This document shows positions 6,634 to 52,618 of a stretch of 52,618 nucleotides of DNA, piece by piece. The stretch comes from a virus, in IMG/VR virus record IMGVR_UViG_3300026519_000002, positions 1 through 52,618 of that record. The stretch is one strand, 5' to 3'. The stretch's first letter is position 1. Every line of letters starts with the position of its first letter. Made by a program: the position numbers and the translations under genes. The notes under the pieces are model-generated. The model searched no databases, was not told the DNA's origin, and saw only the letters and a program-made list of their open reading frames with translations.

Positions 6634-7086
6634 CTACGCGGCCGCGTGCCACCTTGCCGCGGGGGTGCGAGGCGTGCCCTGTTGCTCGATGAGGCCGTCC
6701 TCGAGCAAGGCGTTGAGGCGCCCCACCTCCTCGATGATCGCGGTGAAGGTGACCCCGTCATTGCGCTTCAAGAAATCGAGAATGGCTTGTCGATCCTCGG
6801 CCGCCGGGCTGCCGTTGCTAGGACGGTCGGGCGGCGCTTTCGGTCGTGACTGGGGGCGCTGCTTGTCGACGGTGGGCTGGCGTCGCTTGCCCGAAGCCCG
6901 GCGCTTCTTGGGCTTGCTGGGCGTCCCCTCATTGGCGGGGGTCGTAATCTGCGCCGCCACGCCGCGACGAGCGAGGGTGACCAGCTCGTCGTCCGGCAAC
7001 GCCCGGATGACGGTGGCGAGAGTCGTGTCGTCGACGCGGGACAACAGGGCGTAGAGCAACGCGTTTATGGGCTGACCTCGAAGCAT
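6634..7086 (-). CDS. Hypothetical protein with C-terminal winged-helix-like segment
   Basis: The 150-residue protein has a helical N-terminus (about 1-50) and a basic proline- and lysine-rich linker (about 55-95). Its C-terminus (QAILDFLKRNDGVTFTAIIEE) resembles a small winged-helix or H1-like fold that would contact DNA. It overlaps the end of the DnaA-like gene by 22 bp and precedes the sigma-like gene, so it belongs to the early regulatory end of the replication operon. Function is not known. Confidence 0.65.
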   Translation of the reverse strand: MLRGQPINALLYALLSRVDDTTLATVIRALPDDELVTLARRGVAAQITTPANEGTPSKPKKRRASGKRRQPTVDKQRPQSRPKAPPDRPSNGSPAAEDRQAILDFLKRNDGVTFTAIIEEVGRLNALLEDGLIEQQGTPRTPAARWHAAA

Positions 7087-7361
7087 GCGCGTCGCTCAGC
7101 CTTGGCGACGCGGACGTTGTGCATGATGGTGGTGTGGTGCCCCCCGAAGAGCCGAGCGATCTCGGGGTAGCTGAGTCCGTATTCCTGGCGAATGGCCAGC
7201 TGCAGGTGCCTGCGCACCCGCGCAACAGCCTTCGTACGACGGGCTCCGATGACCTCGGCAGGCAGCACGGCGTTGTCGCGACACGTCTGCTCGAGGAGCT
7301 TGTAGATCGGCGGACGCCGACGTAGCTCCCGAAGAAGCCTCTCCGCCTCATCCCACGTCAT
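7065..7361 (-). CDS. Stand-alone DnaA domain IV-like DNA-binding protein
   Basis: The 98-residue protein matches the C-terminal DNA-binding domain of the initiator DnaA. A basic helix (RRHLQLAIRQEYG) is followed by LSYPEIARLFGGHHTTIMHNV, corresponding to the DnaA signature GG.DHTTV.HA. The AAA+ ATPase part is absent. It could bind DnaA-box-like sites at the phage origin or compete with host DnaA. The ATG at 7361 is used. An in-frame ATG at 7523, behind GAGGAGG, would add 54 polar residues of no recognised fold. It is the first leftward gene after a repeat-rich upstream region. Confidence 0.78.
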   Translation of the reverse strand: MTWDEAERLLRELRRRPPIYKLLEQTCRDNAVLPAEVIGARRTKAVARVRRHLQLAIRQEYGLSYPEIARLFGGHHTTIMHNVRVAKAERRACFEVSP

Positions 7362-7369
7362 TTGACCCC

Positions 7370-7505
7370 CTGAACGTCTGGGACCGCTTCGCTGAACGTT
7401 CGTTTTTCCGTCTCGAAATCGGCAGGCATTTCGCCTCGAGGCGACGAAATCGTGCTGAGCCCTCGTGTTGTCCAGTGTCGGCCGTTCATCGGATTGTCCG
7501 TTCAG
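7370..7505. promoter_or_regulatory. Repeat-rich upstream region: GAACG half-sites and a 14-bp palindrome
   Basis: CTGAACGT occurs at 7370-7377 and 7392-7399. Its reverse-complement core CGTTCA occurs at 7483-7488 and CGTTCAG at 7499-7505. Between them lies the perfect palindrome TCGCCTCGAGGCGA (7431-7444). The layout suits an operator or replication-initiation site for the adjacent DnaA-like protein or the repressor. If translation starts at 7523, the region is coding instead and the repeats may be chance. Confidence 0.45.
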
Positions 7506-7619
7506 CTTTTTGCGCACGCACATGTGCCTCCTCACGATGATCGGTAATGCTCAACCCTCGCCGCCCAGGTCCACGTAGAGGTGGTCGAATTCGTCGAGAG
7601 CCTGACTACAATCGTCGCT

Positions 7620-7781
7620 ATGGCACTCAACGGCCGGACCGCCCGCAAGGCGCTCATATGCCCCCATTGCGGCATGCTCCTGCGGCCCAACTACGCCGTC
7701 ATCCTGGCGATGACGGGCGTGTGGTTCTTCGGCTTCACCTTCGGCCTGTTGTGGTTGGTCATGCAGGCCGTGATGCGCTGA
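7620..7781 (+). CDS. Small Cys-containing membrane protein
   Basis: The 53-residue protein has an N-terminal CPHCG motif. One strongly hydrophobic segment follows (about residues 26-49, AVILAMTGVWFFGFTFGLL). It probably anchors in the host inner membrane with a small metal-binding head. TACAAT at 7607-7612 looks like a -10 element 7 nt before the ATG, which would give a leaderless mRNA; no good -35 is visible. An upstream in-frame GTG (7581) would add 13 residues. It ends 14 bp from the convergent repressor gene. A moron such as an exclusion or host-interference factor is possible but unsupported. Confidence 0.55.
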   Translation: MALNGRTARKALICPHCGMLLRPNYAVILAMTGVWFFGFTFGLLWLVMQAVMR

Positions 7782-7795
7782 GCCCCCAGCGACCA

Positions 7796-8116
7796 TCAGG
7801 CTGTTTCGGGTCCAGGAGCCGCAGCGCTGGCGAGACGCTGAAGCTCGTCGAGAGGCCAGGGGCCAGTTGGGGCCGTGCTGAACGCGTCGATCTCGATGTT
7901 GAGCTCGTCCCGCACCTTGGGGAGGAACTTCAGCCCTGGCTTGCCGAACGCATAGAGCCAGCGGTTCACAAGCCCCGAATCGCAGCCGATCCGCTCGGCG
8001 AGCTCGGCCTGCGTCCAGTCACGGTCGAGCATCACGATCCAGAGCTGGCGCTGCCCCTCGTTCGCGTGAACGCCGAACGCGCGCTTCAAGATCGTGCGAG
8101 AGCGCTTCTCGGTCAT
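7796..8116 (-). CDS. Cro/CI-type helix-turn-helix repressor
   Basis: The 106-residue DNA-binding protein has a central helix-turn-helix (WTQAELAERIGCDSGLVNRWL) and no peptidase domain. It is the best candidate for the lysogeny repressor. Its promoter has TTGACA and CATAGT with a 17-bp spacer. The -10 ends 6 nt before the ATG, so the mRNA is probably leaderless, as known for lambda cI from PRM. The -35 overlaps a 15-bp operator-like sequence that recurs at the rightward early promoter (9599-9613), so autoregulation is likely. It could instead be a Cro-like antirepressor; no second repressor is seen. Confidence 0.75.
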   Translation of the reverse strand: MTEKRSRTILKRAFGVHANEGQRQLWIVMLDRDWTQAELAERIGCDSGLVNRWLYAFGKPGLKFLPKVRDELNIEIDAFSTAPTGPWPLDELQRLASAAAPGPETA

Positions 8117-8122
8117 GCGCCC

Positions 8123-8151
8123 ACTATGATGATAACTGTCAGGCCTGTCAA
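8123..8151 (-). promoter_or_regulatory. Repressor promoter with overlapping operator
   Basis: Reading leftward, the -35 is TTGACA (8151-8146), the spacer is 17 bp and the -10 is CATAGT (8128-8123). The repressor ATG follows after 6 nt. The operator candidate TTGACAGGCCTGACA covers 8151-8137. It matches 9599-9613 at 14 of 15 positions. A separate inverted repeat, GCTGAC/GTCAGC, lies just upstream at 8173-8188. Confidence 0.65.
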
Positions 8152-8285
8152 GTAACAGACCTTGTTGCTGCCGCTGACATTCGTCAGCATCGACCGGTGG
8201 ACGACACCATCGGTGCGCGAATCGCCTACATGCTCGACGGTGGCTACTGCGTGATGCGCGTAGCGAGGCCCCAGGGGCACGAGGC

Positions 8286-8810
8286 CTGATCCGCGCTCAT
8301 CTCGGGCCGGGCGCTATCATTCGGCTGCGAGGACTCGCCAGCGTCGATGCGGCGCTCAGCTACGTTCACGGCCAGCCGCGCATCGCGGTTCGGCGTGGGC
8401 TGTCTCCAGCACGCGAGCGCTGGGCGCTGATCCATGAGCTCGCCGAGTGGCACCTCGGCGAGATCGGCTACGAGGAGCCCGACGTCGAGCTCGTGGCCGA
8501 GGCCATCACCGCGGCGCTGGTGCTGCCACATGATGCCTTCCGAGCGGCGCTCGCCGATCACGGTCCACGGTTCGGCCCGCTCGGCGATGCCTTCGTGGCC
8601 ACGCCCACAGCGGCCGCACTACGCCTCGGAGAGGTGACTGGATGGCCCCTGGCCGTGGTTGCTCCCACCGGCGTGCGGGTTCGAGGAGATGACTTCGGCT
8701 GGCCCCCCCCACCGGAGCTCGAGCGACTCGCGAAGGCGCGGCGGATGCCCCTCGGGGTCACGAAGCATCGCCTACCTGAACGCAGGCGATGGGCCCTGAT
8801 GGCGAGCTAG
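8286..8810 (+). CDS. ImmA/IrrE-like metallopeptidase, start unresolved (possibly frameshifted)
   Basis: Translation in this frame gives a conserved ImmA-like core with IRLRGLASVDAALSYV, then RERWALIHELAEWHLG carrying the active-site-like HE and following His, then EPDVELVAEAITAALVLP. Proteins of this family cleave phage repressors to trigger induction, and its position beside the repressor fits. There is no ATG or GTG upstream of the active site in this frame. The GTG at 8493 would remove the catalytic helix. A 30-codon ORF in another frame (8197-8289, GTG start) could be the displaced N-terminus. The gene is therefore frameshifted, mis-sequenced or uses an unusual start. It ends convergent with the lipoprotein gene. 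Confidence 0.6.
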   Translation: MIRAHLGPGAIIRLRGLASVDAALSYVHGQPRIAVRRGLSPARERWALIHELAEWHLGEIGYEEPDVELVAEAITAALVLPHDAFRAALADHGPRFGPLGDAFVATPTAAALRLGEVTGWPLAVVAPTGVRVRGDDFGWPPPPELERLAKARRMPLGVTKHRLPERRRWALMAS

Positions 8811-9553
8811 GGCTCTGCGGCTAGCTCCTTGCCCCCACCCGCAGGCCGGTAGCCGGACCACATCACGCCGCAGTTGTTGCTGTCACCCAAGACTCGCAGC
8901 ACGTGACCCCGGTCGACGAGGATGCGAACGCTGGGAAGATCCGCATCCAGCTCGAGGCGCCACACGATGCTGTCGACGTCGAGCACATCGACGAGCTCGA
9001 CAGTCATCCCCTCGCAGGTGCGCGACGAGCGCACCAACGTCATGACGACGAAAGGCCCAGGCGTCACGATGCTTCCGGGCGAGGCCATGCCGCCGTCGAG
9101 TTGGGCACGGTCGTTGCGGGGCGAGGTGGGCGACCGAGGTGGTCGCCTGTGATAAGGGTTCATCAGATCCGATGTTGATCCCATCGCCGAAGCCGCGACC
9201 GTGGACGACGCGGATGGTGCCGGCGTGGCTGGCGTGGACGCCGCCAATGCTTCGGCAACCACCATCAATGGTTCTGCGTACCTGTCCGCCCCCGGGATGT
9301 CCTGCAGCATCTTCACTGCGCTGGCAAAGGTCTGTAGCTGCTCCGGCGAGTTCTTCACGGCTGCCGCGGCGATGGTCTTCAGCCCCTTGGTGCGCTTACC
9401 CTCGACAACCTCGAGCACGCCCTCCGTCATCTGGCCGCAGGCCTGAAGCCCAGCGTTCTCGCACTGGGATTTCACGGGCGACTTGAGCACCATCGAGACC
9501 CCTCCGCACCCCACCACCAACACACCGAGCAGCATCACCCAAACTCGCGACAT
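8807..9553 (-). CDS. Phage-encoded lipoprotein (probable lysogenic-conversion moron)
   Basis: The 248-residue protein has a signal peptide and lipobox (MSRVWVMLLGVLVVGC), so it should be a membrane-anchored lipoprotein. After the Cys comes a helical region with two further cysteines, then a Ser/Ala/Pro linker (about 108-130) and a C-terminal domain with ...SRTCEG... and SNNCGVMW cysteines. It has its own leftward promoter in the switch region (TTGAAT, 17 bp, CAGTAT, then 7 nt to the ATG), so it may be expressed in the lysogen. Phage lipoproteins in this position often block superinfection at the cell surface. That is inference from context. Confidence 0.72.
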   Translation of the reverse strand: MSRVWVMLLGVLVVGCGGVSMVLKSPVKSQCENAGLQACGQMTEGVLEVVEGKRTKGLKTIAAAAVKNSPEQLQTFASAVKMLQDIPGADRYAEPLMVVAEALAASTPATPAPSASSTVAASAMGSTSDLMNPYHRRPPRSPTSPRNDRAQLDGGMASPGSIVTPGPFVVMTLVRSSRTCEGMTVELVDVLDVDSIVWRLELDADLPSVRILVDRGHVLRVLGDSNNCGVMWSGYRPAGGGKELAAEP

Positions 9554-9560
9554 GGCTGCA

Positions 9561-9627
9561 ATACTGGCGACCGCTCACCCCAAATTCAACTCTGACAGTT
9601 GACAGACCTGACAAGTGTGACCATAGT
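9561..9627. promoter_or_regulatory. Divergent promoters and operator of the early operon
   Basis: Rightward: -35 TTGACA (9599-9604), 17 bp, -10 CATAGT (9622-9627), then 6 nt to the ATG at 9634, the same geometry as the repressor promoter. The operator TTGACAGACCTGACA (9599-9613) covers the -35, with an extra TGACAG half-site just upstream (9593-9598). Leftward: -35 TTGAAT (9589-9584), 17 bp, -10 CAGTAT (9566-9561), 7 nt to the lipoprotein ATG. Repressor binding here would silence the early operon. Confidence 0.68.
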
Positions 9628-9633
9628 CAGGGC

Positions 9634-10140
9634 ATGGTCCTACGCCCCACCGACTACTGTGCTCCCCTAAGCAAGGTCCTCCACACTGCCAACGGCGAGT
9701 CCTTCACCTGCGCGAGCTGCGGCGCCACCGAGGGCGCCTTCGTCCGCTACGAGCAGCTGGGTGACCACTGCGAGCGCTGCGCGCTGAGCTGCTGCGGCTG
9801 CGGCGAGGCCACCGAAGCGCACGACCGCATGATGTGCGGCGACTGCCGCCCGCACCACGAGTTGACCGAGGACGCCGCCGGGCGCGTGTGCTGGGGGGTC
9901 AGGCCCGCTGCCATCAAGGTGCAGACCAAACGGGTTCGCATCGGCCGCGTGAGTGTGCGTCGTGACGTGCTGTCGCGCGCGCTGCAGGCGGCCGACCGCG
10001 CCGACACTCAGCTGCTCATGGAGCACGGCTGGGCGCCCTACGGGCGACACGGCTGGTGGCGAAAGGAACGGGTGGGGGCGAGCACTACGAAGGCGGGCGC
10101 CCTGGCGCAGGTGCGCGACGAGCTGCGGAGGTCGGGGTGA
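9634..10140 (+). CDS. Cys-rich zinc-ribbon protein, first gene of the early operon
   Basis: The 168-residue protein opens the rightward operon directly behind its promoter, and the mRNA is probably leaderless. The first half is dense in cysteine pairs (FTCASCGATEG, HCERCALSCCGCGEA, MMCGDCRPHH), enough for two or more zinc sites. The second half is basic and helical (VRRDVLSRALQAADR). It may bind DNA or RNA or block a host protein early in infection. No family is recognised. Its stop overlaps the next ATG (TGATG). Confidence 0.72.
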   Translation: MVLRPTDYCAPLSKVLHTANGESFTCASCGATEGAFVRYEQLGDHCERCALSCCGCGEATEAHDRMMCGDCRPHHELTEDAAGRVCWGVRPAAIKVQTKRVRIGRVSVRRDVLSRALQAADRADTQLLMEHGWAPYGRHGWWRKERVGASTTKAGALAQVRDELRRSG

Positions 10141-19080: not shown

Positions 19081-19227
19081 CCGCGGTCTCTCGACCTGAT
19101 ACCCACGGAGCTGGCGCAGTATCCACTACATAGTGGAGGCAGTGCTCCCGCAGGCTGCCGCGCGCGCCGGCATGCGGGCGATCGGTTTCGAGCTCGAGCC
19201 CTAGAATCCGAGTTCTACGGTGCGGCC
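19081..19227. promoter_or_regulatory. Intergenic region between convergent int and endolysin genes
   Basis: It contains a perfect inverted repeat TCCACTA/TAGTGGA at 19122-19128 and 19131-19137. A 7-bp pair GGTCGAG/CTCGACC straddles its left edge with a 23-nt spacer. No T-tract terminator is visible. These repeats, some 350 bp from the attP core, could be integrase arm or excisionase sites. An open frame ending at 19203 may be a gene remnant. Confidence 0.35.
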
Positions 19228-20472
19228 CTAAGCCGCCATCAGGTACGCCAGCGGCGCCTCGGGCCCCACGAGGGTCCGGTCCTGCCACCGGATGGCGTCG
19301 CGCTCGTTGCCACCGATGCAGCGGACCACCTGCCGGTCGTCGAATCGGGTCGTGGCCGTCGTGATGTGGCCCTGTCCGGCCTGCCCCCCGAGCTCGACGG
19401 GGAGCGGACTCTGGCCGTTGCGGCCGTAGATCACCGCGTCGCCCGGCATGGGCCTGTAGCCGTCGCTGTGGAGCCGCAGCAACCCGCGGCCGTGGCTGTC
19501 CGCGCAGAGCTCCCGGACGCTCACACGCAGGCCGTGGGGCGGCGTGTCGCCGACGAGCAGCACCCGCAGCAGCAAGTACGACCGGAACGCGGCGCACCAG
19601 GCGTCCTCGTCTCGAGGTAGCGGCAGCGGCAGCCCGCCGATCCACCACGGCTGACCGTCATCGGTGAGCCCCCGGAATTCGCCGCCACGCCGGCAGTGGC
19701 GGCTGTACTCGAGGATGCGCGGGTTGTGACGAGCGCCTGGGATCTCTTTGACGTTGTGCCCGAATTCGAACCCCGCCATCTCCACCAGGCGTTGGCCGAT
19801 CGTCAGCGACTGCCACCACCCGACGTCCACCCAGGGCTCGACGGGGCCGCTTGGCGGCGCGGAGTCCGTCCGACCGCCCACGAGGAACGGGACGAGGTGA
19901 TCGCGGAGCACCTGCGGGCCGTGCTCGGTCAGCGCGCGGCCGTGCTGTTGCTTCATCGTCTCGCCCGGCTTGGGATCGCGATGGATGATGACCCCCTCGG
20001 CCTGCATCTGCCGGAGCGTTTCTGCCGTCTTGGTCGTGCTCGGATACGTGTAGGGGTCGACGTCGGTGTGCGTGACGATCAGGTGTCCTCCGTCGTCGGC
20101 GTACTTCTTCACGTGGCTCAGCTGCGCCGCCGAGCCATGCAGCCCGTCGAGGAACACGCAGGCGTCGATGGCGCTCCGATCGAGGGGGTGCGTCAGCAAC
20201 CCGTCGCGGGCGTACCAGCAGCCTGCCGAGTACCCCACGAAGGCGAGCTTGCTCACGCTGACCCCGGGTGCGTACTTGTCGAGCGTGGCGGGCAGCAGAC
20301 GACCATCGCCACGACGAAGGTTCGCGGCTTCGGTCTTGAACACGGACGAGAACCCGGCGATGGGGATGAGCTTGAGCACGAAGTCCCCGAGGGGACGCAG
20401 CGCCTCTTCGTACTTGGCGAGCGTGGCGCGGTCGGGCGCACCGGGCGTGGCGAACAGAACGAGCGTGGTCAT
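19228..20472 (-). CDS. Endolysin: alpha/beta-hydrolase domain fused to NlpC/P60-like (TIGR02594-type) peptidase
   Basis: This is a 414-residue two-domain lysin. Residues 1-200 look like an alpha/beta hydrolase, with VGYSAG carrying nucleophile S82, then VFLDGLHG and HLIVTHTD for the acid/base region. Residues 220-414 match TIGR02594-type cell-wall peptidases, with EIPGARHNPRILEY, catalytic C293 in DAWCAAF, GDAVIYGR and H369 in GQGHITTAT. The peptidase would cut peptidoglycan cross-bridges; the hydrolase may act on an envelope ester. There is no signal peptide, so release depends on the holin. Its ATG overlaps the histidine-kinase stop (ATGA). Confidence 0.78.
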   Translation of the reverse strand: MTTLVLFATPGAPDRATLAKYEEALRPLGDFVLKLIPIAGFSSVFKTEAANLRRGDGRLLPATLDKYAPGVSVSKLAFVGYSAGCWYARDGLLTHPLDRSAIDACVFLDGLHGSAAQLSHVKKYADDGGHLIVTHTDVDPYTYPSTTKTAETLRQMQAEGVIIHRDPKPGETMKQQHGRALTEHGPQVLRDHLVPFLVGGRTDSAPPSGPVEPWVDVGWWQSLTIGQRLVEMAGFEFGHNVKEIPGARHNPRILEYSRHCRRGGEFRGLTDDGQPWWIGGLPLPLPRDEDAWCAAFRSYLLLRVLLVGDTPPHGLRVSVRELCADSHGRGLLRLHSDGYRPMPGDAVIYGRNGQSPLPVELGGQAGQGHITTATTRFDDRQVVRCIGGNERDAIRWQDRTLVGPEAPLAYLMAA

Positions 20473-21833
20473 GAGTCCTCCAAGGGCAGCTCGAATGTGA
20501 AGGCGGCGCCGCGTCCGGGGCCGTCGCTCTCGGCCCAGATCCGACCGCCGAGCTCGTCGGTGACCTGGCGGCAGAAGCTCAGCCCGAGCCCGTGCCCAGG
20601 CGTGCTGTCATGCGCCCGGAAACCCGCGTCGAAGAGGCGCTCGGACTGCTCGGGTTCGAATCCACGGCCATGGTCGCGCACCGTCACACGGACGCTGCCG
20701 ACCGACTCCGAGGCGGTCACGGTGATCCGCGGAGCCGTGCCGCCGTACTTGGCCGCGTTCGCGACGAGGTTGAGCAGGATGGTCCGTGCCGCCATCGGCA
20801 TCCGCACGTCGGCACCGGTCACGTGGACACTCGCGCCGTGCTTCTCGATGTGGTTGCGTTTGCTTACGAGCACGTCATCCATCAGCGCCGCGAGCGTCAC
20901 GAGCTCGCGCTTGCCGGTGAGGGATCCGTAGATCCGCTCGATCGCCACGACCTGGCGGTGGATGTGCTCGGCCGCCTCGGCGACGTCCGCAGCCGTCACC
21001 CCCGACGTCGGGTTGGAGGCCATGCGCGCCAGGTGCACGACGTGGTTGAGCGGCGAGCGAAGGTCGTGGCAAGTCTCACCCACGAACAGCGCCATTCGGC
21101 TGTTCACCGCCTCACGATGCTCGCGCTCCGCCTTCAGCTTGGACTCGGCCTGAATGACCCGACGCGTCCTCGCGTTGGTGAGCGCCATCGCCGCCGCGAA
21201 CGCCAACGAGAAGCCCACGATCACGGGCGACCCAGTGGCTACCGCCAGCGCCAGCCCGGTCGCCCCAAGACCGCCGGCCATTGCGAGCGATGCCGCTCGC
21301 TCCCCAAGGTTCGCACTCACCACCATTCCCCCTCCCACGAGGACGAAGGCCCCCGACGTGTGCACGGCCATGTCCGTCCACGGCCCCCACGAGTAGCTAG
21401 CGCTCGTGCCGCTCACGTACCCGAGGAGCGTCGTCCCTCCCGCCACCGCCACGAGCACCCCGGCCACAGCACGAACTCTCCGACCGGCGAGAAGGCCCGC
21501 GCTCAGAACGAACGAGCCGGCCGTGGCCGGAGACATCAGTCCGGGCCGGTAGGTCGCGGTGGTTGTCCAGGGCTCGAACAGCAGCGTAGCGGTCCCGGTG
21601 TCCACGCTTGCGTAGTCAAGGAGCGCCAAGATCCCGAGCGCCGCTGCCCCCAAGACCTCAACGCCCCGTCCCCGCCACAGCGCCGAGCCCGCAAGGCAAA
21701 ACCCGAGCGCCGTGTTGGGCTGCATCGGGGCCGCACCTGGGATCACCTGGACGAGCGGCGGCACCCGCAGCGCCCAGCCCACGAGCACCAGGGCGCCCAG
21801 CGCGAACACGACAGCCGCGGCGACACGGATCAC
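20469..21833 (-). CDS. Membrane sensor histidine kinase in the lysis operon
   Basis: This is a complete 454-residue kinase. Residues 1-220 form about eight hydrophobic segments with a PMQPNTALGFCLAG motif, seen in integral-membrane sensor regions of bacterial kinases. A helical linker leads to the H box ETCHDLRSPLNH (H256), N box LLNLVANAAKYGG (N355/N359), G1 RDHGRGF (387-391) and G2 GHGLGLSFCRQV (413-417). All catalytic motifs are intact. The GTG start overlaps the receiver-protein stop (GTGA), and the stop overlaps the endolysin ATG. The longer ORF to 22499 is shadow. It should autophosphorylate and pass phosphate to the neighbouring receiver. The signal is unknown. Confidence 0.88.
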   Translation of the reverse strand: MIRVAAAVVFALGALVLVGWALRVPPLVQVIPGAAPMQPNTALGFCLAGSALWRGRGVEVLGAAALGILALLDYASVDTGTATLLFEPWTTTATYRPGLMSPATAGSFVLSAGLLAGRRVRAVAGVLVAVAGGTTLLGYVSGTSASYSWGPWTDMAVHTSGAFVLVGGGMVVSANLGERAASLAMAGGLGATGLALAVATGSPVIVGFSLAFAAAMALTNARTRRVIQAESKLKAEREHREAVNSRMALFVGETCHDLRSPLNHVVHLARMASNPTSGVTAADVAEAAEHIHRQVVAIERIYGSLTGKRELVTLAALMDDVLVSKRNHIEKHGASVHVTGADVRMPMAARTILLNLVANAAKYGGTAPRITVTASESVGSVRVTVRDHGRGFEPEQSERLFDAGFRAHDSTPGHGLGLSFCRQVTDELGGRIWAESDGPGRGAAFTFELPLEDS

Positions 21834-22567
21834 AGGAACACCCTCAACACCTCGATGATGACGGAAACGATGGCACCGAGACTGACACCGCCGATGTAGA
21901 CCTTCCCTTTTTCCTTCAGAGGCAGGTCTGAGAACGTTGAGGCCAGTCGTACGATGTCGTTCCGATTCGTCGTCGTCACCGACTCTGTCTGGGTCTGCCG
22001 CTGCTCGATGCGGTCCAGGCGGTCCAGGATGACCGCGTTGTCTCGACGGCTGTTGGCCAGCGCGCGCATCATCGAGCCCTCGCCCGGCTGCTCGTCGGCC
22101 AGCGTGTCGAGCTGGTCCGCCTCGTCGCGAGCCGCGTCCGAGATCACCTTCGTGTCTCGCGTGGCCGACCGGCGCAGCGCCGCAAACTCCAGCGCCCGGC
22201 GGATGTGCGCGGGCTCGGTCCCGGGCTTCTTTACGAGGAAGTCGTCCGCGCCCCCGTCGCGCATGATCCCCAACCGCACGACGTCGTCGGCGCAGCCGGT
22301 GTAGACGACGATCGGCGTCCCCTCGGCAGCCGACTTTACCGCGTCGAACGTGTGTCGCCCGCGGCTGTCGCCGAGATCGAGGTCCTGCAGGACCACGTCG
22401 AAGGGGCGACCCTGGCGCTTGGCCTGGTCGAGCGCCGCTAGCGTGGACGCCAGCGAGAACGCCTCGACCACGTCGTGGTCGCCACGCAGATCGGCGCACG
22501 CGATCCGACGGTCGAAGTCCTGGTCGTCGCTGACCAGGATCCGCAGCTTGCCCGGGGCTCGGTACAT
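21830..22567 (-). CDS. Response-regulator receiver domain fused to a holin-like coiled-coil/membrane tail
   Basis: This is a 245-residue protein. Residues 8-120 are a canonical receiver: acidic pair D14/D15, phosphoacceptor D62 (VVLQDLDL), T90 (VVYTG) and K113/K114 (LVKKP). There is no DNA-binding output domain. Instead a charged helical region (about 130-205, with LDRLDRIEQRQTQTES) ends in one membrane segment (about 222-245, GGVSLGAIVSVIIEVL). That C-terminal plan resembles XhlA-type holin accessory proteins. It is followed by its kinase (GTGA overlap) and the endolysin. A phosphorylation-controlled lysis effector is the attractive hypothesis. A simple membrane-tethered phosphate sink is the alternative. 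Confidence 0.82.
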   Translation of the reverse strand: MYRAPGKLRILVSDDQDFDRRIACADLRGDHDVVEAFSLASTLAALDQAKRQGRPFDVVLQDLDLGDSRGRHTFDAVKSAAEGTPIVVYTGCADDVVRLGIMRDGGADDFLVKKPGTEPAHIRRALEFAALRRSATRDTKVISDAARDEADQLDTLADEQPGEGSMMRALANSRRDNAVILDRLDRIEQRQTQTESVTTTNRNDIVRLASTFSDLPLKEKGKVYIGGVSLGAIVSVIIEVLRVFL

Positions 22568-51742: not shown

Positions 51743-52545
51743 GCCGCGGCCATCTTGTCGAGCGCCGCCTCGATGAGCGCTCCGCTGCCATTGCGCACCT
51801 CGAGCCCGCACGCCGCCCGAAGCACCGTCAGCCGGCTCACCCCTGCCTGTTTGGCCACCTTGGCGTCGCCATGCGCCTTGAGCAGCGCGGCGAGCGCCTT
51901 CCGCTGTCCTTCGTTCAAGACCACGTTGGGAGAGGTGGCACGCAGCGGCGTCGCAGACCGCGCATGGTCACTTGTAACAACGCTCTGACGATTCCCCATC
52001 GCGGAATCGTTGAGGGATTCGAGGTGGAGCACGAAAAAGTTGGGCTGCTTGCCCTGGTGCCAGTCGCGGATCACCTCCACGTGCCCCGCGACCTCGAGCT
52101 GCTCGAGGGCGTAGCGCACCTGATCGCGGCTCAGGCTCGTGGCCAGCTGCAGCTGCGCGTGGCTCACCGGCTCCCCACGAGCACGCAGCAGTGCCTGGGC
52201 GACGAGCAGCTGCGTCTCGGTGAGCGCCGCGGCGCCGACCATCCCCAGCTGCTGGGCGAGCTGCCCCTGCTCGGTGAGGTGCCACTGCGCGTCGTGGCAC
52301 CACAGCGCCTCGCCCTGCGCCTGCATCCACGCCACGCAGTAGCGGGGGTCGACCGGCAGGTGCTCCTCGTCGAGGGCCCAACCGAGGATCTCCCGCATCG
52401 TCGCCGGCGCCTCGAGCAACCGCGTGCGCACCGGCTGGCTCCACGCCTCGAGGCGCGGATCGTCGCCAGCCGGCTCGAGCTCGAGCCACCGATGCGGCGG
52501 CCGCATTCGCTGCCGCGGGCCTTGGCGTCGGCGACGGCGGGTCAT
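51739..52545 (-). CDS. Winged-helix DNA-binding protein of the packaging operon
   Basis: The 268-residue protein has a central winged-helix region, QLLVAQALLRARGEPVSHAQ then LATSLSRDQVRYALEQLEVA and GHVEVIRDWHQGKQ. A second helix-turn-helix-like segment lies near the C-terminus (GQRKALAALLKAHGDAKVAK, then QAGVSRLTVLRAACG). It may regulate late genes or bind DNA for packaging. The first 18 codons lie in the terminal repeat and reappear at 1-54. It is preceded in the circle by the 56-residue ORF. Confidence 0.68.
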   Translation of the reverse strand: MTRRRRRQGPRQRMRPPHRWLELEPAGDDPRLEAWSQPVRTRLLEAPATMREILGWALDEEHLPVDPRYCVAWMQAQGEALWCHDAQWHLTEQGQLAQQLGMVGAAALTETQLLVAQALLRARGEPVSHAQLQLATSLSRDQVRYALEQLEVAGHVEVIRDWHQGKQPNFFVLHLESLNDSAMGNRQSVVTSDHARSATPLRATSPNVVLNEGQRKALAALLKAHGDAKVAKQAGVSRLTVLRAACGLEVRNGSGALIEAALDKMAAA

Positions 52546-52618
52546 CGCTCACGCCCCTCTTCGCCGGCTGGGACAAGTGCGGGATCCCACGGTGTCACGA
52601 CGCTCGGCGTAGGTCAGC
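52492..52618. repeat. 127-bp terminal direct repeat, right copy
   Basis: Exact copy of 1-127. One copy should be removed to circularise the genome; the packaging operon then runs uninterrupted from terS (757) through the junction to the terminase large subunit. Confidence 0.95.

What the first reader, a model, noticed from the sequence alone, without database searches (positions are those of the whole stretch)
8117..9633. Lysogeny switch built from two matching promoters sharing one operator and probably giving leaderless mRNAs
The repressor promoter (leftward, 8151-8123) and the early promoter (rightward, 9599-9627) both have TTGACA, exactly 17 bp, CATAGT, then exactly 6 nt to ATG. Both carry TTGACAG(G/A)CCTGACA over the -35. 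The lipoprotein promoter (TTGAAT, 17 bp, CAGTAT, 7 nt) has the same leaderless geometry. One repressor could control both arms 1.5 kb apart.
Basis: partly seen in the sequence, partly recalled or inferred. Interest (0 to 1): 0.66.

Follow-up and report, generated by a model that had tools for sequence, protein, structure and literature searches.

The report
Phage lysogeny switch with shared operator
A bacterial virus with no close known relative appears to switch between dormancy and growth using one small repressor that can sit on two nearly identical promoters, its own and that of the first early gene, both so close to the start codon that their mRNAs probably have no leader; each of these features is already known from other phages.

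Summary
Leftward 8151-8123 and rightward 9599-9627 both read TTGACA, 17 bp, CATAGT, then 6 nt to ATG. Over the 43 bases before the ATGs they match at 31, against a maximum of 25 in 1,891 other gene-start pairs. The 15-mer occurs only at these two places in the 2.5-Mb assembly, even with 2 mismatches. I read the shared element as a 14-bp imperfect dyad, TGWCAGR.YCTGWCA, centred 27.5 bp before each start codon, where a bound dimer would block RNA polymerase. The contig is a complete temperate myovirus-type genome. The 106-aa gene behind the left promoter is a Cro/C1-type HTH protein, so autorepression plus repression of the early promoter is the simplest reading. The leaderless claim fits the geometry but is unproven. 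The lipoprotein promoter is weak. 'Both arms' is not supported: the left promoter serves the repressor, and the leftward operon starts elsewhere without this operator. No relative with a comparable immunity region was found, so co-variation of repressor and operators could not be tested. The design is known: lambda cI leaderless; PY54 cI and cro both leaderless; BPs repressor with operators at Prep and PR.

The parts
8123..8151 (-). repressor promoter: TTGACA, 17 bp, CATAGT; 6 nt to ATG
8137..8150 (.). operator at repressor promoter: 14-bp dyad TGTCAGG.CCTGTCA (+ strand), 6 of 7 pairs symmetric, centre 27.5 bp before the start codon
   Evidence: binding inferred
7796..8116 (-). repressor gene, 106 aa, Cro/C1-type helix-turn-helix
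   Evidence: Pfam HTH_26 22.2 bits (cut-off 22), PHROG transcriptional repressors; PDB 3bs3 E 0.003
9599..9627 (+). early rightward promoter: TTGACA, 17 bp, CATAGT; 6 nt to ATG
9600..9613 (.). operator at early promoter: 14-bp dyad TGACAGA.CCTGACA, 5 of 7 pairs symmetric, centre 27.5 bp before the start codon
   Evidence: binding inferred
9591..9597 (-). extra half-site TGTCAGA (minus strand), present only at the early promoter, between it and the lipoprotein -35
9634..10140 (+). first early gene, 168 aa, cysteine-rich N-terminal half (CxxC pairs), no family
9561..9589 (-). putative lipoprotein promoter TTGAAT, 17 bp, CAGTAT; 7 nt to ATG; weak
8807..9553 (-). lipoprotein gene, 248 aa, lipobox VVGC
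8286..8810 (+). M78 (ImmA/IrrE-like) metallopeptidase frame with HELAEWH; no ATG/GTG/TTG in frame before the motif, probably frameshifted or a degraded gene
   Evidence: Pfam PF06114 4.5e-8
7620..7781 (+). 53-aa zinc-ribbon/membrane protein, convergent with the repressor; TACAAT 7 nt before ATG

Best explanation
This is the immunity switch of a temperate myovirus-type phage. Shown: two promoters with the same -35, -10, spacer length and distance to ATG, and the same 14-bp dyad centred 27.5 bp before each ATG. Inferred: the 106-aa HTH repressor binds the dyad as a dimer. It shuts the early rightward promoter in the lysogen and limits its own synthesis at the leftward promoter, because the site covers the -35 and the upstream half of the spacer in both, a position for steric block rather than activation. 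Transcription from both starts at or within a few bases of the ATG, so both mRNAs are leaderless or nearly so. The extra half-site at the early promoter may make it bind more tightly there. With the early promoter blocked, the back-to-back lipoprotein promoter (starts 81 bp apart) would be freed from competition and stay on in the lysogen (inference).
For: Exact anatomy. Start-aligned similarity beyond all 1,891 other pairs. 15-mer unique to these sites in the assembly; the dyad TGWCAGRYCTGWCA has exactly two perfect sites in the window. HTH of the repressor class in the gene behind the left promoter. Integrase, terminase, portal, capsid, sheath and terminal repeat make a complete temperate phage. 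Of 63 gene starts only the repressor and early genes have a promoter with 2/12 mismatches in leaderless position, and neither has a well-placed Shine-Dalgarno match. Precedents: PY54 cI and cro mRNAs begin at the AUG by RACE (PMC4488713); most XRE regulators autoregulate through dyads (PMC12565409).
Against: No binding or transcript data. The dyad is imperfect (A at position 3 and at its symmetric position 12 in both sites), and the same bases can be read as direct repeats TGACA(G/A) 9 bp apart. The HTH score is marginal and the AlphaFold model poor (pLDDT 59). No relative was found to show that operators and repressor change together. Other DNA-binding proteins are encoded nearby (DnaA_C-type HTH at 7065-7361).
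Confidence: 0.68

Rival explanations
1. The two promoters are recent copies of one another or convergent strong sigma-70 promoters in a GC-rich genome, and their similarity reflects RNA polymerase recognition, not a repressor operator.
For: TTGACA and the -10 are polymerase contacts; 34/46 identity runs over the whole promoter.
Against: The conserved part extends through the first nine spacer bases (8/9, P about 0.0004), which sigma-70 is not known to read, and forms a dyad; the last eight spacer bases diverge (3/8).
Confidence: 0.15
2. The shared element is bound by another phage protein (the early 168-aa cysteine-rich protein, or the DnaA_C-type HTH protein), as a Cro-like or activator site.
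For: Both proteins are encoded nearby; DnaA_C HTH domain E 8.5e-10.
Against: The site overlaps the -35, unsuited to activation; autoregulation of an HTH gene through its own promoter is the usual case.
Confidence: 0.1
3. Direct-repeat operator (TGACA-N4-TGACA, 9-bp period, a third copy 7 bp upstream in the early promoter) bound by monomers, somewhat like the asymmetric sites of mycobacteriophage L5.
For: TGACA copies at 9593, 9600, 9609 on the plus strand; two at the left promoter.
Against: No further asymmetric copies spread through the genome; the dyad reading explains the same bases.
Confidence: 0.12

Closest known systems
Telomere phage PY54 immB (cI/cro)
   Same: Repressor and lytic gene each transcribed from a promoter that gives an mRNA starting at the AUG (RACE; PMC4488713).
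   Different: There cI and cro share one intergenic region; here the promoters lie 1.45 kb apart with a peptidase frame and a lipoprotein gene between them.
Lambda cI / PRM-PR
   Same: One repressor controls its own and the early rightward promoter; cI mRNA leaderless (cited in PMC4488713).
   Different: No tripartite operators, no shared back-to-back region, and no peptidase domain found in the 106-aa repressor; operator position suggests autorepression, not activation.
Mycobacteriophage BPs gp33 with ORep and OR
   Same: Small repressor with related operators at both the repressor promoter and PR (PMC4557955).
   Different: BPs operators are paired half-sites in five regions of the genome and its immunity depends on integration (attP within the repressor gene); here there are two single dyads and the integrase lies elsewhere.
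ICEBs1 ImmR/ImmA
   Same: Small XRE repressor next to an M78 metallopeptidase frame.
   Different: ImmA is co-directional with ImmR there (general knowledge); here the M78 frame is divergent and lacks a usable start.

Membership tests
Autoregulated XRE/Cro-C1 repressor of a temperate phage | Cro/C1-type HTH domain | tested here: met
   HTH_26 22.2 bits vs cut-off 22; HTH_3 21.2 vs 23; phage repressor PHROGs; marginal
Autoregulated XRE/Cro-C1 repressor of a temperate phage | Operator-like dyad in its own promoter and in an early promoter | tested here: met
   (sequence only)
Autoregulated XRE/Cro-C1 repressor of a temperate phage | The protein binds those sites and represses both promoters | not testable with these tools
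   needs gel shift, footprint and reporters
Autoregulated XRE/Cro-C1 repressor of a temperate phage | Phage carries integration functions | tested here: met
   integrase PF00589 2.4e-16, PHROG 1
Lambda-type CI switch | CI with C-terminal LexA-like self-cleavage domain | tested here: not met
   106 aa, no such domain in Pfam
Lambda-type CI switch | Back-to-back PRM/PR sharing a tripartite operator | tested here: not met
   promoters 1.45 kb apart, one dyad each
Leaderless mRNA | Transcript begins at the start codon | not testable with these tools
   -10 to ATG spacing of 6 nt fits
ImmR/ImmA module | Functional M78 peptidase next to the XRE repressor | tested here: inconclusive
   M78 domain with HExxH but no start codon in frame and a probable frameshift
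ImmR/ImmA module | Peptidase inactivates the repressor | not testable with these tools
   needs a biochemical assay

The most novel reading that the evidence does not exclude
The whole immunity block (53-aa membrane protein, repressor, lipoprotein, first early gene) is translated from leaderless mRNAs while most of the rest of the phage uses Shine-Dalgarno starts, so that entry into and exit from lysogeny respond to the state of the ribosome pool.
Probability: 0.15. Interest if true: 0.45.

Novelty: new member of a known kind. Interest (0 to 1): 0.27.

Why it matters
It gives a specific, testable operator and repressor for a complete phage that has no close relative in the viral, phage or prokaryote collections searched. 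It adds a likely second case, beside PY54, in which both the repressor and the opposing early gene have leaderless geometry. It changes no general view of lysogeny switches.

Tried and rejected
Relatives: the repressor gave only generic HTH matches in IMG/VR and GTDB contigs and none in INPHARED; early protein, peptidase frame and lipoprotein gave none with a comparable region; terminase and portal gave none close, and two terminase matches in the same class share nothing else. Operator plus -10 pattern in IMG/VR: two hits, both inside genes of AT-rich phages, about as many as I would expect by chance. AlphaFold model of the repressor too poor to use. The attP region found no clear attB in the assembly or two congeners, so the host is unsettled. 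'Both arms' rejected (see verdict). A frameshifted start for the peptidase at GTG 8197 is suggested by coding scores but not by alignment of that piece to a homologue.

Full report
SETTING. The window is one whole contig (G000:C103) whose first and last 127 bases are identical, as an assembler leaves for a circular or terminally redundant molecule; the unit is 52,491 bp. It encodes terminase, portal, major head protein, tail sheath, tape measure and baseplate proteins on the minus strand and ParB-like, ERF, PD-(D/E)XK nuclease, SSB and integrase proteins on the plus strand. It is therefore a complete temperate phage with a contractile tail. The assembly has 2.54 Mb in 143 contigs, with no 16S found. 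Four sampled contigs have 72-75% G+C, against about 69% here. Whether this assembly is the true host is not settled.

OBSERVATION. Both promoters are exactly as described. The similarity is far beyond that of any other pair of gene starts in the phage (31/43 against a maximum of 25 in 1,891 pairs). The 15-mer has no third copy in the assembly at up to two mismatches, although the backward control gave one match. The -35 accounts for six of the 15 bases, so the independent signal is the first nine spacer bases (8/9, P about 0.0004) and the shared non-consensus -10 CATAGT.

WHAT THE SITE IS. I read it as a 14-bp dyad TGWCAGR.YCTGWCA. The left site has 6 of 7 symmetric pairs, the right site 5 of 7. 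Both are centred exactly 27.5 bp before the ATG. These are the only two perfect matches to that dyad in the window. The early promoter has one extra half-site at 9591-9597. A direct-repeat reading (TGACA every 9 bp) is possible but explains less. The position over the -35 and spacer implies repression at both promoters.

THE PROTEIN. The gene behind the left promoter encodes 106 aa with a Cro/C1-type HTH (HTH_26 just above its cut-off; phage repressor PHROGs). No solved structure is close (3bs3, E 0.003), and the model is too poor to add anything.

LEADERLESS GEOMETRY. Scoring every gene start for a promoter 5-8 nt upstream, four of 63 starts reach 5/12 mismatches or better: the repressor (2), the early gene (2), the 53-aa gene (4) and the lipoprotein (5). 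All four lie in the immunity region and none has a well-placed Shine-Dalgarno match. About one start would reach 5 mismatches by chance, so the lipoprotein alone is not significant; at 4 or fewer, 0.14 is expected and three are seen. Roughly a third of all genes also lack a 4-nt Shine-Dalgarno match, so its absence alone is weak evidence.

ANATOMY AROUND IT. Between the promoters lie an M78 peptidase frame (plus) and the lipoprotein gene (minus). The M78 frame has its HExxH motif but no ATG, GTG or TTG upstream of it, and coding signal passes to another frame near 8287; it may be frameshifted or degraded. Left of the repressor is a convergent 53-aa gene, then the leftward operon from 7361-7535, which has none of these dyads upstream. 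So the repressor acts, on this evidence, at its own promoter and at the rightward early promoter; control of the left arm is not shown.

COMPARISON. PY54 is the nearest precedent for a switch with leaderless repressor and lytic-gene mRNAs (PMC4488713); lambda cI mRNA is leaderless too (cited there). BPs has repressor operators at Prep and PR (PMC4557955). XRE regulators usually autoregulate through dyads (PMC12565409). An unrelated viral contig with an XRE protein (L003-L005) also repeats part of the repressor-upstream sequence about 1.05 kb away. I therefore file this as a new member of a known kind.

LIMITS. No binding or transcript data exist, and no relatives with a comparable immunity region were found in the collections searched, so co-variation, the best computational test, could not be made.

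Noticed in passing
19228-22567, minus strand: The phage carries a histidine kinase (20469-21833) and a response regulator (21830-22567) next to the integrase, unusual cargo for a temperate phage.
   Followed up: partly
8197-8810, plus strand: M78 peptidase frame without a usable start codon; coding signal changes frame near 8287, so the gene is probably frameshifted or degraded.
   Followed up: partly
7361-7535: Upstream region of the leftward operon has TGAACG twice (7371, 7393) and CGTTCA twice (7483, 7499), a different repeat that might serve the DnaA_C-type HTH protein encoded there.
   Followed up: partly
19121-19134: Inverted repeat CCACTACATAGTGG (6-bp arms) just after the integrase gene, a candidate attP core.
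   Followed up: partly
1-127 and 52492-52618: Identical 127-bp ends: the contig is a complete circular or terminally redundant phage genome.
   Followed up: yes
L004:5847-5867 and L004:6903-6916: An unrelated viral contig with an XRE protein has CATTATACGAGCATGCTCGTA before that gene and CATTATACGAGCA again about 1.05 kb away.
   Followed up: partly
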